From: Pseudomonas sp. Teo4
Lineage (GTDB): Bacteria > Pseudomonadota > Gammaproteobacteria > Pseudomonadales > Pseudomonadaceae
Assembly (NCBI RefSeq): GCF_034387475.1
Contig: NZ_JAXCIL010000002.1
Location: forward strand, 1,426,001-1,490,000
Length of the DNA: 64,000 nt
Direction of reading: 5' to 3'
Each line of letters opens with the position of its first letter. The first letter of the stretch is position 1. Below are positions 1 through 64,000 of the stretch, one piece after another. The translations under genes and the position numbers were made by a program. Under the pieces are notes generated by a model, which worked only from the letters and a program-made list of their open reading frames with translations, was not told where the DNA came from and did not search any database.

Positions 1-1
1 C

Positions 2-222
2 ACCTCCACCGACCTGGAACGCCAGGCCGCGGAAGCGCTCGCACAGATCGAGCGGGTACCCGTGCCGATCCGGGACCTCATCAACCCAGACCGCTGCCCG
101 GCGGCGTTGCTGCCCTTCCTCGTCTGGACCGTTTCCGTCGATCGATGAGGCAGCCGCTGGAGCGAATCGGCCAAGCGCGGCGCCATCCGATCTTCGTACT
201 ACATCCACTACCGGAATGGCTG
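2..222 (+). pseudogene. Phage tail protein I (P2 gpI-like), fragment
   Basis: This is an open 5' piece of a P2-type baseplate/tail gene that enters from outside the window. The frame starting at base 2 reads 'IERVPVPIRDLINPD..CPAALLPFLVWTVSVDR', the typical N-terminal region of tail protein I. An in-frame TGA at 146-148 sits where the family normally has Trp (SVDRW), so it looks like a TGG to TGA change. The same frame then resumes family-like sequence (WSESAKRGAIRSSYYIHYR) to about 215. After that the homology ends and portal sequence starts in another frame. In the cell this protein would belong to the tail baseplate. Here it is broken. The identification rests on recognisable family sequence only. 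Confidence 0.75.
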
Positions 223-722
223 CCAGCGCTACAGGCCGCGTTGCTCAACGAATCGGCGACGCTGTTCCGCCGCAAGTATTACCAGAACGGTAGCCATGCG
301 GGCTTCATTCTGTACATGACCGACGCTGCCCAGAATGAGGACTTTGTCGACGACCTGCTCACCGCAATGAAGAGCAGCAAGGGGCCGGGCAACTTCCGAA
401 ACCTGTTCATGTACGCGCCTAATGGCAAGAAGGATGGCATTCAGCTGATTCCCATCAGCGAGGTCGCCGCAAAGGACGACTTCGGCGCCATCAAGAACAT
501 CAGCCGCGATGACCAGTTGGCCATGCTTCGCATACCGCCGCAGCTTATGGGAGTGGTGCCGCAGAACTCTGGCGGCTTTGGTTCGGTGCGTGAGGCCGCT
601 CAGGTATGGGCGGTGAACGAGCTGGAGCCGAGCAGGCCAGGCTACGGCAGATCAATGATTGGCTGGGTGAAGAGGTGATCCGCTTCGCTCCGTACGAACT
701 GCCAGCTCGGGCCGAGGGCTAA
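205..722 (+). pseudogene. Phage portal protein (P2 gpQ/PBSX-like), C-terminal fragment, frameshifted
   Basis: From about 211 the reading frame gives LPEWLPALQ, NESATLFRRKYYQNG, DFVDDLL and QLMGVVPQN, the characteristic C-terminal half of P2/PBSX-family portal proteins, which form the head vertex through which DNA is packaged. The N-terminal half is absent and is replaced by tail protein I sequence. Near 630 the frame slips by one base. In the next frame the expected ending (ARLRQINDWLGEEVIRFAPYEL) continues to a TAA at 720-722. A hairpin terminator follows directly. The gene is non-functional: truncated, fused and frameshifted. The ATG at 145 opens an ORF that reads through both pieces but is unlikely to be a real start. 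Confidence 0.85.
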
Positions 723-735
723 TTCGACCTGAATG

Positions 736-768
736 AAATAGCCGCCCTAATGGGGCGGCCTTTTTAGC
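736..768 (+). terminator. Rho-independent terminator after portal remnant
   Basis: A GCCGCCC stem pairs with GGGCGGC around a TAAT loop and is followed by CTTTTT. It lies 14 bases after the portal stop codon. The TM-protein gene on the minus strand ends at 764, so the hairpin may serve both convergent transcripts. Confidence 0.75.
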
Positions 769-1363
769 CCTTGAAGCTTTTAACAAACTTTCCAAGCTCT
801 TGGAAAAATGCGGCGATTGTTCCGTAGTCTTCGTTCTGATCCTTGTCAGATTTCTCATGCTCTCTACCCATCCGTTCAAAATTCGTCACCAAACGGGCGA
901 TTGTGATGAATAGGATGATTGCGATGGCTGAAGAGAACGTGGCAGGAATCAGCGGTGCAAGAATGTGCAAATAGAACGTTTCTTTATTGGATTCTGCAGT
1001 GGGGGATTTGGATTCTTCTTTCTTAGCAGCGGTTGCAACCTTTACTGGCTTCTTCGCGGTAGGTTGTGGGGCAAGCTCAGAAGCTGCTTTCAAGGCTACT
1101 CGCTCTTCCTTCGCTTTGGCATCTGCCTTGGCGTCGTCCAGCCCATTCAAAAAGTGGAAGCCAACCCACATTGAAAAGAGAAGGCAACCCACTGCAGCTA
1201 ACGTCAGGGTAGTGAGTGCCACCGCTGAGAACCACCGGCTGTACTCTTTGCGTCGGATGGCCTCGTCGCCCAGGCGCACCTCGAGGTCGCTTATCTGACT
1301 CGGTGTCGTAAATTTGGAGCCAGCAATGTCGCCGGCTCCAAACTGAGGCTCTTCAGCATTCAT
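764..1363 (-). CDS. Two-helix membrane protein with Ala/Lys linker, partner of ImmA-like peptidase
   Basis: This is a 199-residue protein of unknown function. Visible architecture: a soluble N-terminus (1-45), a first hydrophobic segment at about 46-72, a charged Ala/Lys/Glu-rich linker (about 76-128, with AAKKEESKS), a second hydrophobic segment at about 131-160 and a charged C-terminal tail. This suggests an inner-membrane hairpin with a periplasmic or coiled linker. Its ATG overlaps the stop of the upstream metallopeptidase gene (ATGA), so the two are translationally coupled and probably work together. I do not recognise a family. By analogy with other phage-borne peptidase/membrane pairs it could be a regulated target or an effector, but this is inference. 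Confidence 0.8.
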   Translation of the reverse strand: MNAEEPQFGAGDIAGSKFTTPSQISDLEVRLGDEAIRRKEYSRWFSAVALTTLTLAAVGCLLFSMWVGFHFLNGLDDAKADAKAKEERVALKAASELAPQPTAKKPVKVATAAKKEESKSPTAESNKETFYLHILAPLIPATFSSAIAIILFITIARLVTNFERMGREHEKSDKDQNEDYGTIAAFFQELGKFVKSFKG

Positions 1364-1899
1364 CCGAGAAGGCCCAAATTCTTGAGCCTGTAGGACATAG
1401 CCGCATTTGATACTCCGAATGCTTCGGACATTTGTTGAACCGAGGTAGCTCCAGAAAAGAGCTCTCTGACCCTTGGTTCTGGCATTACAAGCTCAGCAGC
1501 AAAAGAGTTCGCTGCTCGTTCGATGGGATTGTAGTTCCCGAATGTTGTATCACGCTGCTGGGTGTTGTGCTCGTTCACATGGCCAAGCAACACATGGCCC
1601 AGCTCATGGGCCAAAGTGAATCTGTTGCGGTAGATGATCTCGTCCCTGTTGTAATCACAGAAGAAGACCGGGCCATCATCAGTGATTTCGAGTGAAGCTT
1701 GACCGCTAGCGTTCATGGTGAATGAATTCTGAGCGCGGACACGGATAGGAATGGTTTTATCCATTCCTGTTGTTTCATCCTTTTTATAGACCACCAGGCT
1801 GTTGGCAATCATTTCAGGATTGACAGGCAGGTGGCCATCCCAAGCGATCTCAAGCGCTTGCTTTGCGTAATCAACCGCTTTCTGCATGGATGTGATCAT
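1360..1899 (-). CDS. ImmA/IrrE-family metallo-endopeptidase
   Basis: This is a 179-residue zinc peptidase of the ImmA/IrrE (COG2856) type. These proteases typically cleave DNA-binding repressors in mobile elements or stress regulons. The zinc motif HELGH is at residues 98-102 (within HELGHVLLGH). The downstream E-R-A-A-N-x-F-A-x-E-L-x-M-P motif near 127-140 supplies the third ligand. Residues about 153-177 form a helix-turn-helix-like tail (AFGVSNAAMSYRLKNLG). I chose the ATG at 1899 because AGGAGGG lies five bases upstream. An ATG 29 codons earlier has no ribosome-binding site. The gene is the first of a two-gene operon with the membrane protein, and a LexA-like operator lies 117 bases upstream. 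No Xre-type repressor partner is adjacent, which is unusual for ImmA. Confidence 0.85.
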   Translation of the reverse strand: MITSMQKAVDYAKQALEIAWDGHLPVNPEMIANSLVVYKKDETTGMDKTIPIRVRAQNSFTMNASGQASLEITDDGPVFFCDYNRDEIIYRNRFTLAHELGHVLLGHVNEHNTQQRDTTFGNYNPIERAANSFAAELVMPEPRVRELFSGATSVQQMSEAFGVSNAAMSYRLKNLGLLG

Positions 1900-3299: not shown

Positions 3300-3375
<76 letters not shown>

Positions 3376-3473
3376 AATGGGGCGTCATTATAACGATCGT
3401 TTGGCGCCTGTAAACCACTTCCTTTCGATTGAGCGCAAATGACCTAAGTCACCGGCCTAAAAGGAGAATTTTC

Positions 3474-3722
3474 CTACCAGCCGCGGTGGATGGTATTGAC
3501 GCTGGGCTCGGTCTTGCCGGGGTTGAAGAACAGCTTGTCATTATCGCAGCCGCGCTTGCGGCACGGGGCTTCGCCCCGCAGCGGCAGGCCGGTGTCGCCG
3601 CCCAATTGCATGCCTGGGGTGTTCCAGTCCAGATCGGAGTTGTGTGGTGCGGGAGATCCGCCGGCACAGCCGGTCAGGGCGATGGCAAACGCCAGCAGGG
3701 CAAGAGGTTTGGCTTGAGTCAC
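3474..3722 (-). CDS. Small putative lipoprotein
   Basis: Starting at the GTG at 3722, the product (82 residues) has a short lipoprotein signal: Lys5, then a hydrophobic stretch (PLALLAFAIAL) ending in the lipobox LTGC-A-G-G. The mature part is short, contains two further cysteines (CRKRGCDND) and ends in HRGW. I know no function. An upstream ATG at 3848 would add 42 residues that hide the signal peptide, so I prefer the GTG. It stands alone, with tRNA-Thr downstream on the same strand. Confidence 0.6.
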   Translation of the reverse strand: MTQAKPLALLAFAIALTGCAGGSPAPHNSDLDWNTPGMQLGGDTGLPLRGEAPCRKRGCDNDKLFFNPGKTEPSVNTIHRGW

Positions 3723-4188
3723 GAGGGGAAAGTCCGTTAGTCCATTGTCGGTTCTGGCAGAGGGCCAGCCGAAGCATCGTTTTGATTGGGGTGGATGATA
3801 CATCGCTGGAGTGAATGGCGGGGTGCGCATGGCAGCGAATCGGGGCATTTACCTGTGAAAAGGGACTTAGCTGTAAGACCTTTCTGAACCTGAAACCAAA
3901 TGCTTCAGAAACGGTTCGCTTCGGAACTATCCTACGCGCCTTGCTGAAGCTTCTCTGTAGGCAGGGAAATGCCTCATGGATAAGGTTTCCGGGTCGCCCT
4001 GCGACCGGGTGTGAGAACCCGAATTCGAATCCATGCGGTACTACTGTTATGGCAGTTGTGCGCGGGCAGACCTCGGTCTGGCCGGGACTTCCTGGATTCG
4101 CTCGGTTTCTCACCCCGCGTACAGCTGCCGCCCTCACCCGTGAGAAGGTCTAGTGGCAGCCACCTGATATCGAATCCAGGAAAGTGCC
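3723..4188. other. Intergenic stretch containing a structured leader
   Basis: No gene is seen. The right half (about 3985-4165) is dense in inverted repeats and is listed separately as a candidate leader RNA. The left part, 3723-3980, holds the upstream region of the lipoprotein gene and nothing else I can name. Confidence 0.5.
3985..4165 (+). promoter_or_regulatory. Candidate structured leader RNA upstream of DUF6124-like gene
   Basis: Several nested hairpins can be drawn. GGTCGC-CCT-GCGACC lies at about 3992-4006. A long imperfect pair joins GGTGTGAGAACCCGAATTCG at about 4008 with a mirror arm around 4092-4116 (TGGATTCGCTCGGTTTCTCA). It encloses CAGACC-TC-GGTCTG at 4067-4080. A GCTGCC/GGCAGC pair lies at about 4124 and 4154. 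The elements end 24 bases before the ATG of the next gene. From memory, similar blocks precede DUF6124-type genes elsewhere in Pseudomonas, but I cannot check this. Confidence 0.45.
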
Positions 4189-4455
4189 ATGAAGAAGATC
4201 GTCCCTGACCCACCCCGTCGCATCATCAACACCCCTTACTTCTCCATCCACAGCGACATCACCCCACATGACGCGCTCGCCCACGCCAGCGAACTCATGC
4301 GCGGCGTAGCCGAAACCATCGATGAGCACTGCCGCATCCATGCCGGCGAACCTGGCTTGAACATGCTGACCAACGCCGCGCATGCAACCGAGTCGGCCCG
4401 GGCATTGGCCGAGCACGCGCTAACGCGCATCAGCACGTCAAAGCAGGGGGATTGA
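4189..4455 (+). CDS. DUF6124-like small protein
   Basis: This 88-residue protein begins MKKIVPDPPRR, followed by PHDALAHASELMRGVAETIDEH and a helical ESARALAEHAL tail. That layout matches the DUF6124 family, small Pseudomonas proteins of unknown function often found in several copies. The start is supported by AGGAAAG eight bases upstream. The next gene starts four bases after its stop, so the two form an operon. The function is not known. The high similarity of such paralogues and their shared leaders suggests a repeated family. Confidence 0.65.
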   Translation: MKKIVPDPPRRIINTPYFSIHSDITPHDALAHASELMRGVAETIDEHCRIHAGEPGLNMLTNAAHATESARALAEHALTRISTSKQGD

Positions 4456-4459
4456 GGCT

Positions 4460-4732
4460 ATGAGCGATCAAGCTAAAACCCTCGTCACCGCTGGCGTGGC
4501 CACCGCGATCGAGGTGGGCAACCCGCCCGTAGACCTGCTGCGCGTGCTGCCGGGCATTCCGGTGGACTACGCCTACGAGCAGGTCTCGGTGCTGTTGGGC
4601 TACATCACGCATCTTGTGCGTGAAGGCGATGCGGAAGATGACCACAAGCTGCTGGGCGCCGCAGATTACCTGGGTGCCTTGGCGACGGCGTTGATGAACG
4701 ATGTCGACATTGCCAAGGACAGGTTGAACTGA
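4460..4732 (+). CDS. Small DUF3077-like hypothetical protein
   Basis: This is a 90-residue protein with no transmembrane segment. The recognisable pattern is PPVDLLRVLPGIPVDYAYEQVSVLLGYI followed by a helical LGAADYLGALATAL, resembling DUF3077-type proteins that accompany DUF6124 genes in Pseudomonas. It starts four bases after the preceding gene and has GAGG upstream. No function is known. Confidence 0.6.
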   Translation: MSDQAKTLVTAGVATAIEVGNPPVDLLRVLPGIPVDYAYEQVSVLLGYITHLVREGDAEDDHKLLGAADYLGALATALMNDVDIAKDRLN

Positions 4733-5075
4733 GTGGAAATGGCGTTGTGTTGTGAAGGGGGCGTAGTGGTCATGGGCTTTGAATACGCGCATGAATTGCT
4801 GGGGCCGCTACGCGACCCTCTCGCGACACAAGGCCGCTTCCACAGGTGCATCACGGGCTTTGAGTGCAGTGCCATAAATGAAGCTTATGCACAACGGGCA
4901 TTGATGCCTTGCGCGAAAGGCATGCCGCTTCTCATTACCACTGGTCTTTGCGCAAATGCCTGTTTTTACTGGCCTTCACTGGCACGCGGGAATAAGCCAA
5001 GCGTTTGAAATAGCGCTTGGATCCAACCATTCATCACAAGCTTGTTCACAGAGTTATCCACAGGTTTTCCTGCGG
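4733..5075. other. Intergenic stretch between convergent genes
   Basis: No gene or clear terminator is seen. A single DnaA-box-like TTATCCACA lies at 5054-5062, without neighbours that would make an origin. Confidence 0.5.
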
Positions 5076-6281
5076 CTAACGGTCGCGTTCGGCAAGCAGC
5101 AGGAGGTTGCGCGGGGTCAGAGGGTAGTCGCAGAACAGTCCCAGCTGCACTGTGTAGCCTTGTTCTTGCAGGAACAGTGCGCGGTCCAGTACCAGCCAGA
5201 GTTCGAGTGGCCGGCGGAACAGGTTGCGCAAACGCTCGAGGTTGCGCACTTGCGCCAGGCGTTGCCAGCCTGCGGCTTCCAGGGCTTGCCAGTCGGGTGT
5301 GCCGTGCAGAGGTAGCTGCTTGAGCTCGGCCAAGTCGCGGCAATAGTGCTCGAAAGGCTTGTCCAGCCAGGCGGTTGGCAGTGAAGGGGTGGGCAGATAG
5401 TCGTCACTTTGGCGTTGTTGGCGCTGCAGCAGGTCGAAGCCCAAACGGCGTGCCATCGAGGTGTCACGCTGGCGGCGTACGCGGGCGCTGGCGGTGACGG
5501 CTTCGCACAGGGGCAGCGCGAGGTCTTCCACCGACAGGCTCAGCGACGAGTGCTGCGCAGCTGTGGATAACGCCTGGTACTGCGGCGTCTGGATGCGGTT
5601 GTAGCAGCAGGGGGCTACCGCCAGGTGGCGGCATCCGGCCTGGCTGGCCGATTGCAGCAGGCGCACGTGCAGGTCACCGCAGGCGTGCAAGGCGACGGCG
5701 CTGGTGTCTGGAGTCAGGTGACGGGCGCTGTCGTTGGCTAAAACGTCCTGATGCACATGGGTAGCCGGCAAATGATGGTGATCGCTCAGTGCCTGGCCGG
5801 CGGCCACCAGTTCGCTGTCGTACTCCAGGCAGGTCAGGTGTTGGCCTGGCTGAAGCAGCCGGCGCCCCAGGTGGCCCTTGCCGGAACACCAATCCAACCA
5901 GTGATGTGGCTGATCGCGAAAGCCCAGGCGACGGCTGAAGGCTTCGATCTGTTGCCATTTGCGGCCGGGGACGTTGACCTCCAGGCGGTGACTGGCGATG
6001 GAGGCGCTTACGTCGGGGAGGTCGCCGAGGGCCGATAGCTCACTGGCTTGTTGGGCCAGTTGTGGAAACGGCGAGGGCAGCAGGCTTGGGGCTTGCTCGG
6101 TTTCGGCATCCGCCAGTGGGCATTGGCGCAGGTAGGCGGACAGCTCGGGGTATTCGGTTTCCCACGCCAGGCGAAGGGTGGTGAAGGGCCTTGGTTTCCA
6201 CAGCTGTTGGTGCTCGATCAGGAACTGGTCGAGGGCCTGGAAGCGGTCGCTTAGGTGGTGGCTGTGGAGGACGGAGGGCAT
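5076..6281 (-). CDS. Class I SAM-dependent methyltransferase (GSTCD/METTL25-like)
   Basis: This is a 401-residue predicted methyltransferase. The middle has a SAM-binding motif (HWLDWCSGKGHLGRRLL) followed by LTCLEYD as the acidic end of strand 2. A later VAPCCYNRI motif is typical of the Methyltransf_32 group that includes GSTCD and METTL25. The substrate is unknown. The C-terminal part (FEHYCRDLAELKQLP..) is a conserved extension. I start at the ATG at 6281. A longer frame would begin inside a REP element and translate repeat sequence. No Shine-Dalgarno is obvious. It is a single gene, separated by REP sequences from the ABC transporter upstream on the same strand. Confidence 0.75.
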   Translation of the reverse strand: MPSVLHSHHLSDRFQALDQFLIEHQQLWKPRPFTTLRLAWETEYPELSAYLRQCPLADAETEQAPSLLPSPFPQLAQQASELSALGDLPDVSASIASHRLEVNVPGRKWQQIEAFSRRLGFRDQPHHWLDWCSGKGHLGRRLLQPGQHLTCLEYDSELVAAGQALSDHHHLPATHVHQDVLANDSARHLTPDTSAVALHACGDLHVRLLQSASQAGCRHLAVAPCCYNRIQTPQYQALSTAAQHSSLSLSVEDLALPLCEAVTASARVRRQRDTSMARRLGFDLLQRQQRQSDDYLPTPSLPTAWLDKPFEHYCRDLAELKQLPLHGTPDWQALEAAGWQRLAQVRNLERLRNLFRRPLELWLVLDRALFLQEQGYTVQLGLFCDYPLTPRNLLLLAERDR

Positions 6282-6316
6282 GGTTGGGCGTGGGGAATGT
6301 GGTGGTTTTGATGCCC

Positions 6317-6405
6317 TCTTCGCGGGTAAACCCGCTCCCACAGGTACAGTGGTGTCCTCAAGAAGGGCGCCGTACTTGTGGGAGCGGGTTTACCCGCGAA
6401 GGGGC
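6317..6405. repeat. Inverted pair of REP elements (CGCGGGTAAACCCGC type)
   Basis: Two copies of the Pseudomonas REP (core CGCGGGTAAACCCGCTCCCA) lie head to head at 6317-6345 and 6375-6405, separated by about 30 bases, forming a REPIN-like unit. Confidence 0.85.
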
Positions 6406-6415
6406 CAGTTTGGGT

Positions 6416-7105
6416 TCAACGCCCTTGGCAGGCGTCAACGCGCAACCAGCGTTCGAGCAGTTTGAAGCCCTGCACCAGCACGAACGAGATGACCAGGTAG
6501 AACACCCCGGCGGCGAAGAAAATCTCTACCGGCAAGTAGGTGCGGGCAATGATGGTCCGGGCCATGCCGGTCAGCTCCAGCAAGGTCACCGTACTGGCCA
6601 GGGCGCTGGCCTTGAGCATCAGGATCACTTCGTTGCTGTAGGCCGGCAGGCCGATGCGCGCGGCACGCGGCAGCATGATGTAGAACAGCGCCTTGCCCCG
6701 CGACATGCCCAGCGCTCGCGCCGCTTCGATCTCGCCTTTGGGGATGGCCTGCAGTGCACCGCGCAGGATCTCGGCGATATAGGCAGCGGTGTGCAGGGTC
6801 ATGGTCAGCACCGTGCACCAGAACGGATCGCGCAGGTACGGCCACAGGCTGCTCTGGCGTACCAGGTCGAACTGGGCCAGGCCGTAGTAGACCAGGAACA
6901 ACTGCACCAGCAGCGGTGTGCCGCGGAAGAAGAAGATGTAGCCGTAGGGCAGGGCGCGCACGTACCAGTGGCGCGACGAGCGGGCGATGCCCAGCGGGAT
7001 GGCCAGGATCAGCCCGGCGACGACCGCGATGGCCACCAGCTCCAGGGTCAGGGTCGCACCCTGGGCCAGGCGTGGCAGCCACTTGATGATCACTTCCCAA
7101 TTCAT
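6416..7105 (-). CDS. Amino-acid ABC transporter permease (HisM/ArtM-like)
   Basis: This is a 229-residue inner-membrane permease of the polar amino-acid uptake family (HisMQ/ArtQM). It has about five hydrophobic segments and the conserved cytoplasmic loop EAARALGMSRGKALFYIMLPRAARIGLPAYSNE (EAA motif, about 135-168), which contacts the ATPase. It is the last gene of a four-gene operon on the minus strand (ATPase, binding protein, permease, permease). Its ATG shares one base with the stop of the preceding permease (TAATG), showing translational coupling. The substrate is probably a basic or polar amino acid. The closest known systems transport histidine, arginine or ornithine, which I infer from family only. 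Confidence 0.92.
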   Translation of the reverse strand: MNWEVIIKWLPRLAQGATLTLELVAIAVVAGLILAIPLGIARSSRHWYVRALPYGYIFFFRGTPLLVQLFLVYYGLAQFDLVRQSSLWPYLRDPFWCTVLTMTLHTAAYIAEILRGALQAIPKGEIEAARALGMSRGKALFYIMLPRAARIGLPAYSNEVILMLKASALASTVTLLELTGMARTIIARTYLPVEIFFAAGVFYLVISFVLVQGFKLLERWLRVDACQGR

Positions 7106-7797
7106 TATTCGGCCCTCGCAAAGCCGCGAGCGGCGCGTTTTTCCATGAAGTGCATGCCGGTCATGGCAATGATGGTCAGGCTCAGGTAGATGCAGGCGGC
7201 GACCATATAGAAGGTGAACGGCTCCTTGGTCACGGTCACGCCGATTTGCGCGTGGCGCATGATTTCTTCAAGGCCGATCACCGACACCAGCGCGGTGTCC
7301 TTCATCAGGATCATGAACAGGTTGCCAAGGCCGGGCAGGGCGATACGCCACATCTGCGGCAGGATGATCCGCGTGAGGATGCGCCCTTTCGACAGGCCCA
7401 GCGCCAGGCCGGCCTCTCGGTGGCCCTTGGGGATGGCCAGGATGGCACCGCGGAACACTTCCGTGGCGTAGGCGCCGAAGCACAGGCCCAGGGCGATCAC
7501 GCCAGCGGCAAACGCGCTGAGTTCCAGGCCCGGCATGTTGAGGGCTTCGCCGAGGCTGTTCATCAGGCCGACGGTGCCGAAATAGATGAGCAGGACCCAG
7601 AGCAGTTCGGGTACGCCGCGAACCAGGGTCGAGTAGGTGCCGCCAAGCCATTGCAGTGGCTTGACCGAAGAAGTCTTGGCCAGGGCGCCGAGCAGGCCGA
7701 GGACCAGCCCCAGCAGCAGTGCGCAGAGCGCCAGTTTTACGGTCATCAGGGTGCCGGCCGCCATGGCCGGACCGAATCCGTGCAGGTCGATATTCAT
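7105..7797 (-). CDS. Amino-acid ABC transporter permease (HisQ/ArtQ-like)
   Basis: This 230-residue permease pairs with the next gene to form the membrane channel of the ABC importer. Hydrophobic helices begin at about residues 9-35, and the EAA loop is GHREAGLALGLSKGRILTRIILPQMWRIALPGLGN (about 130-165). The N-terminal IDLHGFGPAMAAGTLMTVKLALCALLLG is typical of HisQ-type permeases. It lies 55 bases downstream of the binding-protein gene and overlaps the following permease by one base. Confidence 0.92.
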   Translation of the reverse strand: MNIDLHGFGPAMAAGTLMTVKLALCALLLGLVLGLLGALAKTSSVKPLQWLGGTYSTLVRGVPELLWVLLIYFGTVGLMNSLGEALNMPGLELSAFAAGVIALGLCFGAYATEVFRGAILAIPKGHREAGLALGLSKGRILTRIILPQMWRIALPGLGNLFMILMKDTALVSVIGLEEIMRHAQIGVTVTKEPFTFYMVAACIYLSLTIIAMTGMHFMEKRAARGFARAE

Positions 7798-7852
7798 TGG
7801 CAGGTGCGTTCTAGGGACTGGCGCGCCGCAGGGGCGCGCCGGTCGGGGCGGA

Positions 7853-8605
7853 TCATTCGATGCTGAACGGGAAGTACTTGTCGTTGATCTTCTTGTACGT
7901 TCCGTCGGCCTTGATTTCAGCCAGCGCTTTGTTCAGCTTCTCGCGCAGCGGGTCACCCTTGCGCACGGCGATGCCGATCTTGTCGCTGTCGACCACAGGC
8001 TCGCCCTTGAACTCGAAGTTCATGCCGTCTTTGCTTTTCAGCCACTCGTACTGCACGTACTTGTCGGCCAGGATGCCGTCGATGCGGCCAGAGACCAGGT
8101 CGAGGTAGGCGTTTTCCTGGGTGTCGTAGAGTTTGATCTCGACGGTGTCAGCGAAGTTGTCTTCCAGCCAGGTACCGGCCAGGGTGGCGCGCTGGGTGCC
8201 GATCACCTTGCCTTTGAGCGAGGCTTTGTCGGTTTTGAAGTCGACGTTCTTCGGCGCAATGAACTGCAGCTTGTTGGAGTAGTACGGGTCGGTGAAGTCG
8301 ACGGCCTGCTTGCGCTCGTCGGTGATCGACAGCGAAGACACCAGGAAGTCGAACTTCTTGGCGTTCAGGGCCGGGATGATGCCGTCCCAGTCGGAGGTGA
8401 CGACCGAGCACTCGACTTTCATCTTGGCGCACAGGGCGTCGCCGATGTCTTTGTCGAAGCCGACCACGTTACCGCTGGCATCCTTGTTGTTGAACGGTGG
8501 GTAGGCAGCTTCGATACCCATGCGCAGTTTTTCCGCGGCCATGGCGTTTGCCGACATCACCAGGGTGGCAGCAGCTGCCAGTAGGAACTTCTTGTAAGTC
8601 TGCAT
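7853..8605 (-). CDS. Periplasmic amino-acid-binding protein of ABC transporter
   Basis: This is a 250-residue solute-binding protein (SBP family 3, lysine/arginine/ornithine-binding type). The signal peptide covers residues 1-23 (MQTYKKFLLAAAATLVMSANAMA). The mature protein starts AEKLRMGIEAAYPPFN, with GFDKDIGDALC and AQRATLAG-like ligand-site segments (IGTQRATLAG). I start at the ATG at 8605, preceded by GGAG, rather than 14 codons earlier where there is no signal-peptide logic. It lies 11 bases after the ATPase gene. The protein probably captures a cationic or polar amino acid in the periplasm. Confidence 0.92.
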   Translation of the reverse strand: MQTYKKFLLAAAATLVMSANAMAAEKLRMGIEAAYPPFNNKDASGNVVGFDKDIGDALCAKMKVECSVVTSDWDGIIPALNAKKFDFLVSSLSITDERKQAVDFTDPYYSNKLQFIAPKNVDFKTDKASLKGKVIGTQRATLAGTWLEDNFADTVEIKLYDTQENAYLDLVSGRIDGILADKYVQYEWLKSKDGMNFEFKGEPVVDSDKIGIAVRKGDPLREKLNKALAEIKADGTYKKINDKYFPFSIE

Positions 8606-8616
8606 GTATTGCTCCG

Positions 8617-9390
8617 TTAGCGGTGGCTGGACATGAATTGCTTGCAACGCGCCGAGGTCGGGTTCTCGAAGACCTGCTGCGGCGATCCTTGCTCTTCAAC
8701 CAGGCCCTGGTGCAGGAAGACCACTTCACTGGACACCTGGCGGGCAAAGTTCATCTCGTGCGTCACCAGCAGCATGGTACGGCCTTCTTCGGCCAATGCG
8801 CGGATAACGTTAAGCACTTCCTGGACCATTTCCGGATCGAGCGCCGAGGTCGGCTCGTCGAACAGAATCACCTTGGGCTTCATGGCCAGGGTGCGGGCGA
8901 TGGCAGCGCGTTGTTGCTGGCCACCGGAAAGCTGGGCGGGGTAGCTGTGGCGCTTGTCGTAGATGCCGACCTTGTTCAGCAGCGCTTCGGCGGCTTCGAT
9001 GGCTTCGGCCTTGCTCTGGCCAAGCACGCGGCGTGGCGCCTCGATGATGTTGTCGAGGATCGACATGTGCGGCCACAGGTTGAAGTTCTGGAAGACGAAG
9101 CCGATTTCGCTGCGCAGGCGGTTGATCTGGCGGTTGTCGGCCGCGATCAGGTCGCCGTTCTTGGCGGCTTTGAGCTTGAGTGCTTCGCCAGCAACGAGGA
9201 TTTCACCCTGGTGCGGGTTCTCCAGCAGGTTGATGCAGCGCAGCAGCGTGGACTTGCCGGAACCGGACGACCCCAGGATGGAGATCACGTCACCGTCGCG
9301 GGCGGTCAGCGAAATGCCCTTGAGAATTTCCTGATCGCCGTAGCGTTTGTGCAGATTGCGGATTTCCAGCGCGGGCGTGGCCTGAGCCAT
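8617..9390 (-). CDS. Amino-acid ABC transporter ATP-binding protein
   Basis: This 257-residue ATPase of the HisP/ArtP type energises the importer. Walker [10 protein letters not shown] lies at about 40-48, the Q-loop is in [12 protein letters not shown], the signature is LSGGQQQR, Walker B is [12 protein letters not shown] and the switch His is in [10 protein letters not shown]. It is the first gene of the operon. Placing the ATPase before the binding protein is normal for this subgroup in Pseudomonas. Confidence 0.95.
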
Positions 9391-11385: not shown

Positions 11386-11403
11386 TCCGGGCTGCTTGAA
11401 ATG

Positions 11404-54587: not shown

Positions 54588-54612
54588 GGCGTGGGCGAGC
54601 GCTTTGCGCTCG

Positions 54613-54697: not shown

Positions 54698-54703
54698 TGT
54701 CTG

Positions 54704-55743: not shown

Positions 55744-56082
55744 GACACGGTCCTGTGAACGACGCAGAACAGCACTCTAAACCATCGATTCGGCAGTTGC
55801 CTATACAAGCTGTGCATACATTGATTTCAGTGCTGTCTGGGCTGGACCTATCGCCGGCAAGCCGGCTCCCACAGGGATTTCACAAGGCTTGGGGCAGTGC
55901 AATTGTTGTGGGAGCCGGCTTGCCGGCGATTGGAGCCAGAGAACCCTCTGCAAAACGAATGTCGTAAACGCGCCATTGCAAGGCGTGCGCAGGCATCTGA
56001 CCCACCCCGGCCAGTCATACCATCGGCACAAAGGGCCACAGTGCCCTACAGACAAGAAACGATCGCTGCCGGGAGAAACAAG
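55744..56082. other. ltaE-glyA divergent region with REP pair
   Basis: 339 bases hold an inverted REP pair (55848-55932) and the glyA leader (55933-56082). I see no glycine-riboswitch-like tandem structure in the leader. Confidence 0.5.
55848..55932. repeat. Inverted pair of REP elements (GCCGGCAAGCCGGC type)
   Basis: TATCGCCGGCAAGCCGGCTC at 55848 faces its complement ending at 55932, with about 32 bases between them. Confidence 0.85.
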
Positions 56083-57336
56083 ATGTTCAGCAAGCAAGAC
56101 CAGATCCAGGGTTATGACGACGCACTGCTGGCGGCGATGAATGCCGAGGAACAGCGCCAGGAAGATCACATCGAGCTGATCGCCTCGGAGAACTACACCA
56201 GCAAGCGCGTGATGCAGGCCCAAGGCAGCGGCCTCACCAACAAATACGCCGAAGGCTACCCAGGCAAGCGCTACTACGGCGGCTGCGAGCACGTCGACAA
56301 AGTCGAAGCCCTGGCCATCGAGCGCGCCAAGCAGCTGTTCGGCGCTGATTACGCCAACGTCCAGCCGCACTCCGGCTCCTCGGCCAACGGCGCGGTCTAC
56401 CTGGCTCTGCTGCAAGCCGGTGACACCATCCTGGGCATGAGCCTGGCCCACGGCGGCCACCTGACCCACGGCGCCAAAGTGTCGTCCTCGGGCAAGCTGT
56501 ACAACGCCGTTCAATACGGTATCAACACCGACACCGGCCTGATCGACTACGACGAAGTCGAGCGCCTGGCCGTCGAGCACAAGCCGAAAATGATCGTTGC
56601 CGGCTTCTCGGCCTACTCCAAGACCCTCGACTTCCCACGCTTCCGCGCCATCGCCGACAAAGTGGGCGCACTGCTGTTCGTCGACATGGCCCACGTTGCC
56701 GGCCTGGTCGCCGCGGGTCTGTACCCCAACCCGATTCCATTCGCCGACGTGGTCACCACCACCACCCACAAGACCCTGCGCGGTCCACGTGGCGGCCTGA
56801 TCCTGGCCAAGTCGAACGAAGAGATCGAGAAGAAGCTCAACGCCGCAGTATTCCCAGGCGCCCAAGGCGGCCCGCTGATGCACGTCATCGCCGCCAAGGC
56901 CGTTTGCTTCAAGGAAGCGCTGGAGCCTGAGTTCAAGGCCTACCAGAAACAAGTCATCGAAAACGCCCAGGCAATGGCCCAGGTGTTCGTCGACCGCGGC
57001 TACGACGTGGTCTCTGGTGGCACCGACAACCACCTGTTCCTGGTCAGCCTGATTCGCCAAGGCCTGACCGGTAAAGATGCCGACGCCGCCCTGGGCCGCG
57101 CTCACATCACCGTCAACAAGAACGCCGTACCGAACGACCCACAGTCGCCGTTCGTCACCTCTGGCCTGCGCATCGGTACCCCGGCCGTCACCACCCGTGG
57201 CTTCAAGGTTGCCCAGTGTGTGGCGCTGGCCGGTTGGATCTGCGACATCCTCGACAACCTCGGCGACGCCGACGTCGAAGCCGATGTGGCGAAGAACGTC
57301 GCCGCCCTGTGCGCCGACTTCCCTGTTTACCGCTGA
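56083..57336 (+). CDS. glyA: Serine hydroxymethyltransferase
   Basis: This 417-residue PLP enzyme interconverts glycine plus methylene-THF and serine, the step that turns betaine-derived glycine into serine. PLP Lys230 lies in [16 protein letters not shown]. Other landmarks are [27 protein letters not shown] and [12 protein letters not shown]. Its reading frame is intact, unlike several neighbours. GGGAGAAACAAG precedes the ATG. soxB starts 15 bases after its stop, making glyA-soxBDAG-purU one likely operon with catabolic induction. Confidence 0.97.
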
Positions 57337-57351
57337 GTGGAGTAAACGACC

Positions 57352-58601
57352 ATGCAACGCTATTCGGGCTTCGGCCTTTTCAAACACTCCTCAGCCACCA
57401 CGAGAACTGGCAGCGCATGTGGCGCACGCCGACCCCTAAAAAGGTCTACGACGTGGTCATCGTCGGCGGTGGCGGCCACGGCCTGGCCACGGCCTACTAC
57501 CTGGCCAAGGAACACGGCATCACCAACGTCGCGGTGATCGAGAAGGGTTACCTGGGCGGCGGCAACACCGCCCGTAACACCACCATCGTGCGTTCCAACT
57601 ACCTGTGGGACGAGTCGGCGCAGCTTTACGAGCACGCCATGAAACTGTGGGAAGGCCTGTCCCAGGACATCAACTACAACGTGATGTTCTCTCAGCGCGG
57701 CGTCTACAACCTGTGCCACACCCTGCAGGACATTCGTGATTCCGAGCGCCGCGTCAACGCCAACCGCCTGAACGGCGTCGATGGCGAGCTGCTCAACACC
57801 GCCCAGGTTGCGGCTGAAATCCCGTACCTGGACTGCTCGAAGAACACCCGTTACCCGATTCTCGGCGCCACCGTTCAGCGCCGTGGCGGCGTGGCCCGTC
57901 ACGACGCCGTGGCCTGGGGTTATGCCCGTGCCGCCGACGCCCTGGGCGTGGACCTGATCCAGCAGACCGAAGTGATCGGCTTCCGCAAGGAAAACGGTGC
58001 GGTCATCGGCGTGGAAACCAACAAAGGCTTCATCGGCGCCAAGCGCGTCGGCGTGGTCACCGCCGGTAACTCCGGGCACATGGCCAAGCTGGCCGGCTTC
58101 CGCCTGCCGCTGGAATCGCACCCGCTGCAAGCACTGGTGTCCGAGCCGATCAAACCGATCATCGACAGCGTGATTATGTCCAACGCCGTACACGGCTACA
58201 TCAGCCAGTCCGACAAGGGCGACCTGGTGATCGGTGCCGGTATCGACGGCTGGGTCGGTTACGGCCAGCGCGGTTCGTACCCGGTCATCGAGCACACCCT
58301 GCAGGCGATCGTCGAGATGTTCCCGAACCTGTCCCGCGTGCGCATGAACCGCCAATGGGGCGGCATCGTCGACACCACCCCGGACGCCTGCCCGATCATC
58401 TCCAAGACCCCGGTCAAGAACATGTTCTTCAACTGCGGTTGGGGTACCGGCGGCTTCAAGGCCACCCCAGGCTCGGGCAACGTCTTCGCGGCGAGCCTGG
58501 CCAAAGGCGAGATGCACCCGTTGGCTGCGCCTTTCTCCATCGACCGTTTCTACAACGGCGCACTGATCGACGAACACGGCGCCGCTGCCGTCGCCCACTA
58601 A
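57352..58601 (+). CDS. soxB: Sarcosine oxidase beta subunit (frame break near start)
   Basis: This 416-residue flavin subunit of heterotetrameric sarcosine oxidase has the dinucleotide motif [25 protein letters not shown], the covalent-FMN region [11 protein letters not shown] and the C-terminal [15 protein letters not shown]. It converts sarcosine to glycine with methylene-THF and hydrogen peroxide. One C is missing near 57389 (CACTCCTCAG where CACTCCCTCAG reads [17 protein letters not shown]). The catalytic part is intact. Confidence 0.95.
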
Positions 58602-58616
58602 CCGGAGACAACCGTC

Positions 58617-58952
58617 ATGTTGCAAATTTTCTGTCCCCACTGCGGCGAGCTGCGCTCCGAAGAAGAGTTCCACGCCTCTGGCCAGGCGCACATCGCCCGC
58701 CCGCTGGACCCTAACGCCTGCTCCGACGAGGAGTGGGGTACCTACATGTTCTTCCGTGACAACCCACGCGGTATTCACCACGAACTGTGGGACCACGTCG
58801 CTGGCTGCCGTATGTACTTCAACGTCACCCGTGACACCGTGACCTACGAGATTCTGGAAACCTACAAGATCGGCGAGAAGCCGCAGGTGACCGCCAACGG
58901 CAAGGCCAGCAGCGCCACGTCCACCGCCAAGGGCCAAGGGGAAAAAGTATGA
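58617..58952 (+). CDS. soxD: Sarcosine oxidase delta subunit
   Basis: This 111-residue small subunit binds zinc through cysteines and histidines (FCPHCGELRSEEEFHASGQAHIARP; HHELWDHVAGCRMYFNVTRDT), as in the family. It lies 15 bases after soxB and its stop overlaps soxA by four bases (ATGA). The C-terminal tail is Ser/Ala/Lys rich and somewhat longer than the core. Confidence 0.96.
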   Translation: MLQIFCPHCGELRSEEEFHASGQAHIARPLDPNACSDEEWGTYMFFRDNPRGIHHELWDHVAGCRMYFNVTRDTVTYEILETYKIGEKPQVTANGKASSATSTAKGQGEKV

Positions 58953-61900
58953 GCCAGACCTACCGTCTTGCCAGCGGCGGCCGTATCGACCGCAGCAAGG
59001 TCCTGAACTTCAGCTTCAACGGCAAGACCTACCAAGGTTATGCCGGTGACTCCCGGCCGCCGCGCTGCTGGCCAACGGCGTCGACATCGTTGGCCGCAGC
59101 TTCAAGTACTCGCGCCCTCGCGGCATCATCGCCGCCGGTACCGAAGAGCCGAACGCCATCCTGCAGATCGGCTCCAGCGAAGCCACCCAGATCCCTAACG
59201 TGCGCGCTACCCAACAGGCGCTGTACGCAGGCCTGGTAGCCACCAGCACCAACGGCTGGCCGAACGTCAACAACGACGTGATGGGCATCCTCGGCAAGGT
59301 GGGCGGCAGCATGATGCCGCCGGGCTTCTACTACAAAACCTTCATGTACCCGAAATCGTTCTGGATGACTTACGAGAAGTACATCCGCAAGGCAGCCGGC
59401 CTGGGCCGTGCGCCGCTGCAGAACGACCCGGACAGCTACGACTACATGAACCAGCACTGCGACGTACTGATCGTCGGTGCCGGCCCTGCTGGCCTGGCCG
59501 CAGCACTGGCTGCCGCCCGCAGCGGTGCCGTGTGATCCTGGCCGACGAACAGGAAGAGTTCGGTGGCAGCCTGCTCGACAGCCGCGAAACCCTCGACGGC
59601 AAGCCTGCCGCTGACTGGGTGAACACCGTCGTCAAGGAGCTGCAAAGCCTGCCGGAAGTGACCCTGCTGCCACGCGCCACGGTCAACGGCTACCACGACC
59701 ACAACTTCCTGACCATCCACGAGCGCCTCACCGACCACCTCGGTGACCGTGCCCCGATCGGCCAGGTTCGCCACCGCGTGCACCGTGTCCGCGCCAAGCG
59801 CGTGGTTCTGGCTGCCGGCGCCCACGAGCGTCCGCTGGTGTACGGCAACAACGACGTGCCGGGCAACATGCTGGCCGGTGCCGTTTCCACCTACGTTCGC
59901 CGCTATGGCGTGGCCCCAGGCCGCAAGCTGGTGCTGTCGACCAACAACGACCACGCCTACCGCGCCGCGCTGGACTGGCACGACGCCGGCCTGCAAGTGG
60001 TCGCCATTGCCGACGCCCGCCACAACCCACGTGGGTCGCTGGTTGAAGAAGCACGTGCCAAGGGCATTCGCATCCTCACCTCCAGTGCCGTGGTCGAGGC
60101 AAAGGGCAGCAAGCACGTCACCGGTGCCGCGTGGCCGCTATCGATGTGCAGGCACACAAAGTCACCAGCCCTGGCGAAACCCTCGAGTGCGATCTGATTG
60201 CATCCTCCGGCGGTTACAGCCCGATCGTGCACCTGGCTTCGCACCTGGGCGGTCGCCCGGTATGGCGTGACGACATTCTCGGCTTCGTGCCGGGCGATGC
60301 ACCGCAAAAACGCGAGTGCGTTGGTGGTGTGAACGGCGTGTACGCGCTGGGCGACGTGATTGCCGACGGTTTCGAAGGCGGCGTGCGCGCAGCCACCGAA
60401 GCCGGCTTCAAGGCCACCGTTGGCACCCTGCCGAAAACCGTTGCGCGCAAGGAAGAGGCCACCGTGGCGCTGTTCCTGGTGCCGCACGACAAGGGCACCA
60501 AAGGGCCGAAGCAGTTCGTCGACCAACAGAACGACGTGACCGCTGCCGGTATCGAACTGGCCACCCGCGAAGGCTTCGAGTCGGTTGAGCACGTAAAACG
60601 CTACACCGCACTGGGCTTCGGTACCGACCAAGGCAAACTGGGCAATATCAACGGCCTGGCGATTGCCGCACGTTCGATCGGCATCACCATTCCGGAAATG
60701 GGCACCACCATGTTCCGCCCGAACTACACCCCGGTGACCTTCGGCGCGGTAGCCGGCCGTCACTGCGGCCACCTGTTCGAGCCTGTGCGCTTCACCGCCC
60801 TGCATGCCTGGCACGTGAAAAATGGCGCCGAGTTCGAAGACGTCGGCCAGTGGAAGCGCCCGTGGTACTTCCCGAAAGCCGGTGAAGACATCCATGCCGC
60901 CATCACCCGTGAATGCAAGGCCGTGCGCGACAGCGTGGGCCTGCTGGACGCCTCGACCCTGGGCAAGATCGACATCCAGGGCCCGGATGCCCGCGAGTTC
61001 CTCAACCGCATCTACTCCAACGCCTGGACCAAGCTCGACGTGGGCAAGGCCCGCTACGGCCTGATGTGCAAGGAAGACGGCATGGTCTTCGACGACGGCG
61101 TCACCGCCTGCGTCGGCGACAACCACTTCTACATGACCACCACCACCGGCGGCGCTGCCCGCGTGCTGCAGTGGCTGGAGCTGTACCACCAGACCGAATG
61201 GCCAGAGATGAAGGTGTACTTCACCTCGGTCACCGACCACTGGGCCACCATGACCCTGTCCGGCCCCAACAGCCGCAAGCTGCTGAGCGAGCTGACCGAT
61301 GACATCGACCTGGACAAGGACGCCTTCCCGTTCATGACCTGGAAGGAAGGCACCGTCGGCGGCGTGCCGGCCCGTGTGTTCCGGATCTCGTTCACCGGTG
61401 AGCTATCGTACGAAGTCAACGTACAGGCCAACTACGCCATGGGCGTGCTGGAAAAAATCATCGAGGCAGGCAAGAAGTACAACCTGACCCCGTACGGCAC
61501 CGAGACCATGCACGTACTGCGCGCCGAGAAGGGCTTCATCATCGTCGGCCAGGACACCGACGGCTCGATGAACCCGGACGACCTGAACATGAGCTGGTGC
61601 GTGGGCCGCAACAAACCGTTCTCGTGGATCGGCCAGCGTGGCATGAACCGCGAAGACTGCCTGCGCGAAAACCGCAAGCAGCTGGTGGGCCTCAAGCCGG
61701 TCGACCCGACCAAGTGGCTGCCGGAAGGCGCCCAGCTGGTGTTCGACCCGAAACAGCCGATTCCGATGGACATGGTCGGCCACGTCACCTCCAGCTACGC
61801 GGCCAACTCCCTGGGCTACTCGTTCGCCATGGGTGTGGTCAAAGGCGGCCTCAAGCGCATGGGCGAGCGTGTTTACTCGCCGCAGGCCGATGGCAGCGTG

Positions 61901-61963
61901 ATCGAGGCGGAAATCGTGTCTTCGGTGTTCTTCGATCCGAAGGGTGAGCGGCAGAACGTTTGA
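58949..61963 (+). CDS. soxA: Sarcosine oxidase alpha subunit (three frame breaks)
   Basis: This is the large NAD- and folate-binding subunit, about 1005 residues. An N-terminal ferredoxin-like part (FSFNGKTYQGYAGDS, GRSFKYSRPRG) is followed by the dinucleotide domain CDVLIVGAGPAGLAAALAAARSG and a C-terminal GcvT-type folate domain (GLLDASTLGKIDIQGPDAREFLNRIYSNAW). One C is missing near 59053, near 59529 (GCCGTGTGATC where GCCCGTGTGATC reads GARVILADEQ) and near 60128 (GCCGCGTGG where GCCCGCGTGG reads GARVAAIDVQ). With these restored the protein is full length. It overlaps soxD by four bases. Confidence 0.95.
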
Positions 61964-61993
61964 TTCCGGGCCCTGTGGAGAGCCGGTTGGCCC

Positions 61994-62020
61994 AATCGCC
62001 GGCAAGCCGGCTCCCACAGG
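61994..62020 (+). repeat. Single REP element between soxA and soxG
   Basis: A lone AATCGCCGGCAAGCCGGCTC copy with no inverted partner, about 30 bases after the soxA stop. The remaining gap to soxG (62021-62157) has no gene. Confidence 0.8.
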
Positions 62021-62157
62021 TTCGATGCAGTTCTCTCGGATGATGCGGCCTCTTTAGGCGTCGGCTTGTCGTGGCGACGAACCGCGGCGATGAGGCCGGT
62101 GAATCCACCCAGGTAGCTGCGTCGCTTCGACGAACAAGAATTCAAGGCAGGTAAGAA

Positions 62158-62789
62158 ATGAGCGCTATCAACGTCTTCCAGCAAAACCCCGGCACCGATG
62201 CCAAGGCTCAGTCGCCACTGCACCACGCCGACCTGGCCAGCCTGGTTGGCAAAGCCGCAAGAACGCAGGCGTGACCCTGCGTGAGAAGAAATTCCTCGGT
62301 CACCTGACCATCCGTGGCGATGGCCACGACCCGCAATTCGCCGCAGGCGTACACAAGGCTTTGGGCCTGGAACTGCCAGTGGCTCTGACCGTCGTCGCTA
62401 ACGGCGAAATGTCGCTGCAATGGATGGGGCCCGACGAGTGGCTGCTGATTGTCCCAGGCGGTCAGGAGTTCGAAACCGAGCAAAAACTGCGTGCAGCCCT
62501 CGAAGGCCTGCACATTCAAGTGGTCAACGTCAGCGGCGGGCAAAGCCTGCTGGAACTGCGCGGCCCTAACGTGCGCGACGTGCTGATGAAGTCCACCAGC
62601 TATGATGTTCACCCGAACAACTTCCCGGTGGGCAAGGCTGTCGGCACTGTGTTCGCCAAGTCGCAACTGGTGATCCGCCGCACTGCCGAAGACACCTGGG
62701 AACTGGTGGTTCGCCGCAGCTTCTCCGACTACTGGTGGCTGTGGCTGCAGGACGCTTCGGCCGAGTACGGCCTGAGCATCGAAGCCTAA
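62158..62789 (+). CDS. soxG: Sarcosine oxidase gamma subunit (frame break)
   Basis: This 210-residue gamma subunit has MSAINVFQQNPGTDAKAQSPLHHADLASLVG, then REKKFLGHLTIRGDG, the MSLQWMGPDEWLLIVPGG motif and NVSGGQSLLELRGPNVRDVL. One C is missing near 62255 (AAAGCCGCAAG where AAAGCCCGCAAG reads GKARKNAGVTLRE). It follows soxA by 194 bases that include a REP, and purU follows 12 bases later. Confidence 0.93.
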
Positions 62790-62801
62790 GGAGAACAGAA
62801 C

Positions 62802-63659
62802 ATGAGTCGGGCACCGGATACCTGGATTCTCACCGCCGACTGCCCGAGCATGCTCGGCACCGTCGATGTGGTGACGCGTTATCTCTTCGAGCAGCGTTGC
62901 TATGTCACGGAGCACCACTCTTTCGATGATCGGCAGTCGGGGCGCTTCTTCATTCGCGTCGAATTCCGTCAGCCGGATGATTTCGACGAAGCCGGTTTCC
63001 GCGCCGGCCTCGCCGAGCGCAGCGATGCGTTTGGCATGACGTTCGAGCTGACCGCGCCCAATCACCGCCCCAAGGTGGTGATCATGGTGTCCAAGGCCGA
63101 CCACTGCTTGAACGACTTGCTGTACCGCCAGCGCATTGGCCAATTGGGCATGGACGTGGTGGCGGTGGTGTCCAACCACCCCGACCTCGAGCCGCTCGCG
63201 CATTGGCACAAGATTCCCTACTACCACTTTGCCCTCGACCCCAATGACAAGCCTGGGCAAGAGCGCAAGGTGTTGAAAGTGATCGAGGAGACCGGCGCCG
63301 AGCTGGTCATTCTCGCCCGTTACATGCAGGTGCTGTCGCCTGAGCTGTGTCGGCGCCTGGACGGCTGGGCGATCAACATTCACCACTCGTTGCTGCCGGG
63401 GTTCAAGGGCGCCAAGCCTTATCACCAGGCGTACAACAAGGGCGTGAAGATGGTCGGTGCCACGGCGCACTACATCAACAACGACCTCGATGAAGGGCCG
63501 ATCATTGCCCAAGGCGTCGAGGTGGTGGACCACAGCCATTACCCCGAAGACCTGATTGCCAAGGGGCGGGATATCGAATGCCTGACTTTGGCGCGAGCGG
63601 TGGGGTATCACATCGAGCGGCGGGTGTTCCTGAACGCTAATCGGACAGTCGTTCTCTGA
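62802..63659 (+). CDS. purU: Formyltetrahydrofolate deformylase
   Basis: This is a 285-residue enzyme with an N-terminal ACT domain (about 6-85, ILTADCPSMLGTVDVVTRYLFEQRCYVTEHHSFDD) and a formyl-transferase domain with active-site INIHHSLLPGFKGAKPYHQAY and DLDEGPIIAQGVE (His and Asp). It releases formate from 10-formyl-THF and regenerates THF for sarcosine oxidase. AAGGAG precedes the ATG. It is the last intact gene of the glyA-sox operon. Confidence 0.96.
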   Translation: MSRAPDTWILTADCPSMLGTVDVVTRYLFEQRCYVTEHHSFDDRQSGRFFIRVEFRQPDDFDEAGFRAGLAERSDAFGMTFELTAPNHRPKVVIMVSKADHCLNDLLYRQRIGQLGMDVVAVVSNHPDLEPLAHWHKIPYYHFALDPNDKPGQERKVLKVIEETGAELVILARYMQVLSPELCRRLDGWAINIHHSLLPGFKGAKPYHQAYNKGVKMVGATAHYINNDLDEGPIIAQGVEVVDHSHYPEDLIAKGRDIECLTLARAVGYHIERRVFLNANRTVVL

Positions 63660-63664
63660 CTCTT

Positions 63665-63779
63665 GGGGCTGCTGCGCAGCCCATCGCAGGCTACGCCAGC
63701 TCCCACGAGCAATGCTCCTGCGCATCCGTGGGAGCTGGCGTAGCCTGCGATGGGCCGCACAGCGGCCCCTAAATGCCCC
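63665..63779. repeat. Long REP hairpin, copy 3 of the GGGGCTGC..GCGGCCCC type
   Basis: Same layout as the copies at 22952 and 49940. The variable stem pair here is A-T (GGCTACGCC with GGCGTAGCC). It lies between purU and fdhA. Confidence 0.85.
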
Positions 63780-63928
63780 GCCGCTAACAGACATCCCTCT
63801 GTCGCATCCAGTCAGCGCCTTTGCGCTTATCCGGCCCACAATTCCCTGCATTCCAGTAACACAAGCCGCCCATGGACGGCGGCGCTTCAACCAACGCTGC
63901 ATAAATACAAATCAAGCGAGGTAAGAGC

Positions 63929-64000
63929 ATGTCTGGCAATCGTGGAGTGGTGTATCTCGGCTCGGGCAAGGTCGAGGTGCAGAAAATCGACTACCCGAAA
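63929..64000 (+). CDS. fdhA: Glutathione-independent formaldehyde dehydrogenase, 5' end
   Basis: Only the first 24 codons are inside the window: MSGNRGVVYLGSGKVEVQKIDYP. This N-terminus is characteristic of the zinc- and NAD-dependent FdhA of Pseudomonas, which oxidises formaldehyde released by betaine and sarcosine demethylation. GAGGTAAGAGC precedes the ATG. Its position after purU agrees. The gene continues beyond the window. Confidence 0.88.
   Translation, partial: MSGNRGVVYLGSGKVEVQKIDYPK

What the first reader, a model, noticed from the sequence alone, without database searches (positions are those of the whole stretch)
1..64000. At least 33 single-base frame breaks across intact-looking genes point to a sequence error pattern
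Reading across frames, 22 protein genes can each be restored to full family length by one to four one-base corrections (rarely two bases): ppk2, MFS, hisB (2), hisA, cbcW, cbcX, sdaA, protease (4), cdhA (3), LprI-like, dgcB (3), RHS, gbcA (2), gbcB, both chemoreceptors, TIGR02449, ltaE, soxB, soxA (3) and soxG. Most are loss of one base from a run of 2-6 equal bases. Genuine decay would not spare all remaining residues in so many unrelated and otherwise useful genes. Any gene calls or pseudogene counts from this assembly need correction first.
Basis: partly seen in the sequence, partly recalled or inferred. Interest (0 to 1): 0.75.

Follow-up and report, generated by a model that had tools for sequence, protein, structure and literature searches.

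The report
Unpolished patch in a Pseudomonas assembly
The many broken genes in this stretch of a Pseudomonas genome are almost certainly sequencing mistakes rather than real mutations, and they sit in sharp-edged patches of an otherwise mostly clean assembly.

Summary
Against five syntenic relatives the window has 39 private 1-2 nt frame-shifting indels in 49.5 kb of coding mask; the same rule gives 4, 10, 0, 5 and 1 for the relatives. 31 of the 39 lie in 18 genes with a family match plus one conserved 76-aa ORF; tblastn splits 14 of these 19 into more pieces than in the nearest relative. It is error, not decay: breaks of the same kind hit single-copy secA (three pieces) and ftsZ (two), and murE, ftsW and murG; substitutions keep normal codon-position bias; mutS and mutL are whole. 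The error is not assembly-wide: 3.3-18.6 kb of the window is clean, and the dirty patch runs from 18.6 kb for 85 kb to about C2:1,529.4k. Further dirty blocks of about 60-170 kb lie among clean stretches. Of 98 pooled dirty events 87 are deletions, enriched in runs of 3 or more. This fits a mosaic assembly holding uncorrected long-read consensus; no reads were available.

The parts
3300..18600 (.). clean part of the window: no private frame-shifting indel in the coding mask
   Evidence: 0 of 39 events; no codon-model call in 0-16 kb
18619..64000 (.). dirty patch; continues to about C2:1,529.4k in the assembly (85 kb in all)
   Evidence: 39 of 39 events; first codon-model call at C2:1,444,619; right end by homology with three relatives
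17998..19675 (+). MFS transporter (L-lactate MFS-like), 3 frame breaks
   Evidence: tblastn 4 pieces, G352 1
19869..20499 (+). hisB, 2 frame breaks
   Evidence: 3 pieces; IGPD domain; ends by projection from G227
21424..22160 (+). hisA, 1 frame break
   Evidence: (2 pieces)
24254..25098 (-). cbcW choline ABC permease, 1 frame break within the first residues
25182..26128 (-). cbcX choline-binding protein, 1 frame break
   Evidence: 2 pieces
26573..27943 (+). sdaA L-serine ammonia-lyase, 1 frame break (start inferred from the domain start)
32645..33607 (-). cdhA L-carnitine dehydrogenase, 2 frame breaks
   Evidence: 3 pieces
36713..37130 (-). LprI-domain protein, 1 frame break
   Evidence: (2 pieces)
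41218..43184 (+).
   Evidence: 4 pieces
44427..45196 (+). etfB, 1 frame break near the C-terminus
47239..48616 (-). gbcA, 2 frame breaks
   Evidence: tblastn gives one low-identity piece, so the alignment is the evidence
48821..49926 (+). gbcB, 1 frame break near the C-terminus
50079..51805 (-). chemoreceptor 1, 3 frame breaks
   Evidence: 4 pieces
   Evidence: one 58%-identity piece
52650..54587 (+). chemoreceptor 2, 2 frame breaks
   Evidence: 3 pieces
54704..55743 (-). ltaE-like aldolase, 1 frame break
   Evidence: 2 pieces
57337..58601 (+). soxB, 1 frame break
   Evidence: 2 pieces
58949..61963 (+). soxA, 3 frame breaks
   Evidence: 3 pieces from residue 37 on
62158..62789 (+). soxG, 1 frame break
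   Evidence: 2 pieces
12226..13248 (-). ppk2: intact, contrary to the finding
   Evidence: 340 aa, PPK2 domain; one frame, residues 23-324 of 326

Best explanation
The frame breaks are sequence errors in a mosaic assembly. Most sampled places have reference-like quality, while blocks of about 60-170 kb, one of which starts at about 18.6 kb in this window, carry small indels at about one per kb of coding sequence, mostly loss of one base and often from a G or C run. Shown: private indels, deletion bias, run association, fewer long runs in dirty blocks, block-wise distribution, essential genes hit, no relaxed selection. Inferred: that the source is long-read (nanopore-like) consensus, and that the blocks are stretches that missed polishing or were filled in from an unpolished long-read assembly.
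For: Private indels 39 against 4/10/0/5/1. dcw region: 29 in 32.7 kb of coding mask, relatives 1/2/1; rpoB region: 5 in 40.8 kb, relatives 0/0/1. ftsZ and secA each found only once, in pieces, and whole in all five relatives. Broken genes of that region include murE, ftsW, murG, ftsZ, secA, rsmH and argJ, mraZ and ftsQ. Blocks: 51 of 103 10-kb bins without a call, dispersion index 3.75 against a maximum of 1.61 in 10,000 uniform placements (the four stretches were chosen around dirty samples). Spectrum: 81 one-base and 6 two-base deletions, 8 one-base and 3 two-base insertions; 36 of 81 lost bases in runs of 3 or more against 9.7 expected, p 3e-13. Runs of 6: 174 per Mb in dirty against 342 in clean sequence; G/C runs of 6 or more 37 against 105. 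Completeness 96.2% against 99-100% for the five relatives.
Against: No reads were available. 29 of 81 lost bases are not in a run, so homopolymers alone do not explain it. Some of the 39 may be true differences: relatives show 0-10 each by the same rule. Runs of 7 are not fewer in dirty blocks (33 in 431 kb against 38 in 589 kb). The block at C2:2,151-2,266k is uneven inside, with two empty 10-kb bins. The GABA permease in the clean part also gave one more tblastn piece than G352, within a weak 42-residue N-terminal extension. Why the blocks end where they do is unknown; the left edge sequence had no second match in the genome (40 of 119 candidates scored).
Confidence: 0.95

Rival explanations
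1. Genuine decay: the strain has lost choline, betaine, sarcosine and histidine functions and the genes are true pseudogenes.
For: The breaks are private to this genome and, seen in the window alone, hit related catabolic genes.
Against: Private substitutions in the dirty part keep an ordinary ratio of codon positions 1+2 to 3: 0.390 against 0.389, 0.549, 0.342, 1.036 and 0.392 in the relatives. Essential genes are hit at a similar density.
Confidence: 0.02
2. A mismatch-repair mutator strain that gained very many run-slippage indels.
For: Excess loss of bases from runs.
Against: mutS and mutL are whole; a mutator would act on the whole genome, not in blocks; 45 of 81 losses are in runs of 1 or 2; broken essential genes would be lethal.
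Confidence: 0.01
3. Errors spread evenly over the whole assembly.
For: Dirty density in several distant places.
Against: 0 of 39 in 3.3-18.6 kb; 16 of 20 spread samples had 0 or 1 call in 20 kb; abrupt ends.
Confidence: 0.02
4. The dirty blocks belong to a second, related strain, or are decaying duplicates beside intact copies.
For: Estimated contamination 1.15%.
Against: ftsZ and secA are found once each. The first 20 kb of C3-C7 and all of C8-C10 show no near-identical long match to 1.3 Mb of fetched chromosome including the window (longest 2,819 bases at 82.7%). Private third-position changes are about equally dense in the clean and dirty parts (144 in 15.3 kb, 423 in about 41 kb of scored span).
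Confidence: 0.02

Closest known systems
Systematic indel error in nanopore-only bacterial assemblies (Homopolish paper, PMC8011154; passages seen)
   Same: Indels mostly within homopolymers; deletions can dominate after some polishers; many false pseudogenes (151-5298 after Racon and Medaka in R9.4 data, as that paper states).
   Different: Here the errors are confined to blocks and most sampled places are clean.
Gene-fragmenting errors in a long-read Pseudomonas syringae assembly (Kastor paper, PMC12007338; passages seen)
   Same: Most indels are false deletions, tied to runs of 2-8; detected by comparison with related genomes, as done here.
   Different: That paper reports under 0.05% for a whole assembly and most errors at A/T runs; here about 0.1% of coding sequence in blocks, and 65 of 81 lost bases are G or C (50 expected).

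Membership tests
Long-read consensus indel artefact | small indels private to one assembly, well above relatives | tested here: met
   39 against 4/10/0/5/1; 29 against 1/2/1; 34 against 1/5/1 at the right edge stretch, for G227/G173/G067
Long-read consensus indel artefact | deletion bias and homopolymer association | tested here: met
   87 of 98 are deletions; runs of 3 or more 36 of 81 against 9.7 expected; runs of 6 at half density, but runs of 7 not fewer
Long-read consensus indel artefact | breaks fall in essential single-copy genes as in others | tested here: met
   ftsZ, secA; murE, ftsW, murG; essentiality is established knowledge, not tested
Long-read consensus indel artefact | raw reads contradict the consensus | not testable with these tools
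   no reads held
Genuine pseudogenes | relaxed constraint on amino-acid changes | tested here: not met
   position ratio 0.390, within the relatives' range 0.342-1.036; very recent loss would not show in this test
Mismatch-repair mutator | broken mutS or mutL | tested here: not met
   both whole; uvrD and others not tested

The most novel reading that the evidence does not exclude
The most novel reading left is technical: a genome held as the representative of its species is a two-quality mosaic whose dirty blocks, roughly a fifth of the sampled places, hide on the order of a thousand false frame breaks behind a passable 96% completeness. A small share of the 39 could still be true strain differences.
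Probability: 0.8. Interest if true: 0.25.

Novelty: not a real feature. Interest (0 to 1): 0.2.

Why it matters
Anyone using this genome as it stands could wrongly conclude loss of histidine synthesis and of choline, betaine, carnitine and sarcosine use, and would find dead essential genes. A whole-genome score such as completeness hides it because most sampled places are clean, so quality should be mapped along the contigs.

Tried and rejected
Error motif: no motif stood out in both stretches except runs of four G or C (11 of 39 and 9 of 29, background 0.08). CCGG was frequent near breaks in the window (12 of 39, background 0.12) but not in the dcw region (3 of 29); CCWGG and GATC were near background. 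Extra substitutions near breaks: 5 of 165 private position-1/2 changes within 10 bases of an indel against 3.8 expected, so a first impression of substitution clusters was dropped. A repeat at the left edge as cause of the block: no second match found. Small contigs as clean doubles of dirty blocks: no near-identical long match (the listing had been cut short, so I repeated it); only the first 20 kb of C3-C7 was compared, and only with fetched stretches. The codon-model scan finds about half of the known breaks (20 of 39 at penalty 10, 17 at 14; penalty 12 was used) and gives 7 calls in 188 kb of held-out relative sequence; it was trained on the relatives' genes of the window, rpoB and dcw regions. 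The coding mask includes antisense or doubtful ORFs, hence 31 rather than 39 in supported genes. Protease: the 280-aa window piece matches a 657-aa open frame of G152 at 40% identity, too far to count breaks. A plasmid search with 12 kb of the window gave no record covering 80% of it and was not used. Names: dgcB and TIGR02449 were not confirmed by a model; dgcA and purU are recalled names for genes with matching Pfam domains.
Full report
Where the window lies. It is G000:C2:1,426,001-1,490,000 of a 6.51 Mb, 10-contig Pseudomonas assembly with 96.2% completeness. A search of 398 genomes drawn from the genus (379 scored) found the nearest at 91% DNA identity over one gene, G352, then several at 86-87%. 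Five relatives (G352, G173, G299, G067, G227) are syntenic over most of 3.3-64 kb.

Checking the observation. The window and the five relatives were cut into 38 blocks and aligned; an indel was counted if it was private to one genome and did not abut another gap (37 blocks scored). In 49,524 bases of coding mask the window has 39 private 1-2 nt indels; G352 has 4, G173 10, G299 0, G067 5 and G227 1. Of the 39, 31 lie in 18 genes with a family match plus a conserved 76-aa ORF. As a second test, relatives' proteins were searched against the window and against G352: MFS, hisB, hisA, cbcX, sdaA, cdhA, LprI-like, dgcB, both chemoreceptors, ltaE-like, soxB, soxA and soxG (14 genes) fall into more pieces in the window, while hisH, hisF, cbcV, gbdR, dgcA, etfA, glyA, purU and AsmA are single open frames in both. 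cbcW, etfB and gbcB are broken only near an end and give one piece. For gbcA and the 76-aa ORF tblastn gave one low-identity piece, so there the alignment is the evidence. Against this, the GABA permease in the clean part also gave one piece more than G352, in a weak N-terminal extension of 42 residues.

Error or decay. Three tests separate them. First, the dcw region of the same assembly has 29 such indels in 32.7 kb of coding mask, the relatives 1, 2 and 1; genes hit include MurE, FtsW, MurG, FtsZ, SecA, RsmH, ArgJ, MraZ and FtsQ. FtsZ is found once, in two pieces; SecA once, in three pieces with one stop; both are whole in all five relatives. That such genes are essential is established knowledge, not tested here. 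Second, private substitutions of the window lineage in the dirty part have a ratio of codon positions 1+2 to 3 of 0.390, inside the relatives' range of 0.342-1.036, so there is no sign of long relaxed selection. Third, mutS and mutL are whole.

The block pattern. None of the 39 lies between 3.3 and 18.6 kb, 27% of the aligned length (p 4.7e-6 if uniform; boundary chosen after the fact). The rpoB region of the same contig has 5 in 40.8 kb, two of them insertions in one gene, and rpoB is whole. A codon-model scan that needs no relative was run on 31 own loci, the window and 46 relative loci. Own loci gave 0-0.17 calls per kb of coding sequence, or 0.44-0.84 in five of them; the last three quarters of the window gave 0.50-0.55. 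Relatives had 7 calls in 188 kb (12 held-out loci), 1 in 293 kb and 3 in 249 kb (loci partly used in training). Of the 20 own samples spread over C1 and C2, 4 had 3 or more calls (8, 8, 10 and a borderline 3) and 16 had 0 or 1; the spacing was closer in the first 1.5 Mb of C1. Longer stretches show blocks at C2:1,444.6-1,529k, C2:about 2,151-2,266k (uneven inside), C1:about 146-316k and C1:about 1,286-1,348k, flanked by nearly clean sequence; smaller spots lie at C1:100-113k, where G+C is lower and the model less sure, and at C2:2,103-2,110k. Homology with three relatives puts the right end of the window's block at about C2:1,529.4k for coding events; 4 of 34 private coding indels of that stretch lie beyond it, 3 of them insertions, while the relatives have 1, 5 and 1 over the whole stretch. 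Counts per 10 kb are strongly overdispersed. I know of no biological process that breaks genes at about one per kb within such blocks and spares the rest.

The spectrum. Pooled over three dirty stretches (98 coding events): 81 one-base and 6 two-base deletions, 8 one-base and 3 two-base insertions. Lost single bases are in runs of 3 or more in 36 of 81 against 9.7 expected, and are G or C in 65 against 50 expected; 29 are not in a run. Without any relative, runs of five and six equal bases are less common in 431 kb of dirty than in 589 kb of clean sequence (ratios 0.80 and 0.51), while runs of seven are not (1.18). Homopolymer indels, deletion-heavy consensus and false pseudogenes are described for long-read bacterial assemblies in the Homopolish and Kastor papers (passages seen). 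Three paper searches were run; for the one on clustered, unpolished stretches (20 papers with at least 5 of 6 terms) I saw only the listing of 10 and the starts of their abstracts, so I make no claim that block-wise error is unreported.

Conclusion. The assembly is a mosaic: roughly a fifth of the sampled places are dirty, and at about one break per kb of coding sequence that suggests on the order of a thousand false breaks genome-wide (a rough estimate). How the blocks arose is inferred; reads would settle it.

Noticed in passing
11476-11700: About 225 bp that match on both strands (palindromic), one of an interspersed repeat family: 48 matches in 18 of 66 own sequences (the window included) at 75-100% identity and 2 in one relative locus; the stretch between about 11,440 and 11,728 does not align to the five relatives. 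Looks like a REP/BIME- or MITE-like element (recalled label).
   Followed up: partly
1-3375: Relatives' synteny begins at tRNA-Thr (3300-3375); upstream lie an ORF with a weak phage-portal match and one with an IrrE-like domain: possibly a prophage integrated at the tRNA.
   Followed up: no
30064-32273: Stretch that does not align to the five relatives; one 280-aa piece matches a 657-aa open frame of G152 at 40% identity, so the gene here may also be broken.
   Followed up: partly
19715-22250: Relatives keep a long open antisense frame (828-893 aa in four of the five) across hisB-hisH-hisA: a shadow ORF that can trap gene finders and that entered my coding mask.
   Followed up: partly
21139-21396: Two small deletions 11 bases apart in a short ORF between hisH and hisA sum to -3, so the frame is regained.
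   Followed up: no
G173 region matching the window (L026-L029): The complete relative G173 itself has 10 private 1-2 nt coding indels here, more than the other relatives, and 5 in the next stretch.
   Followed up: no
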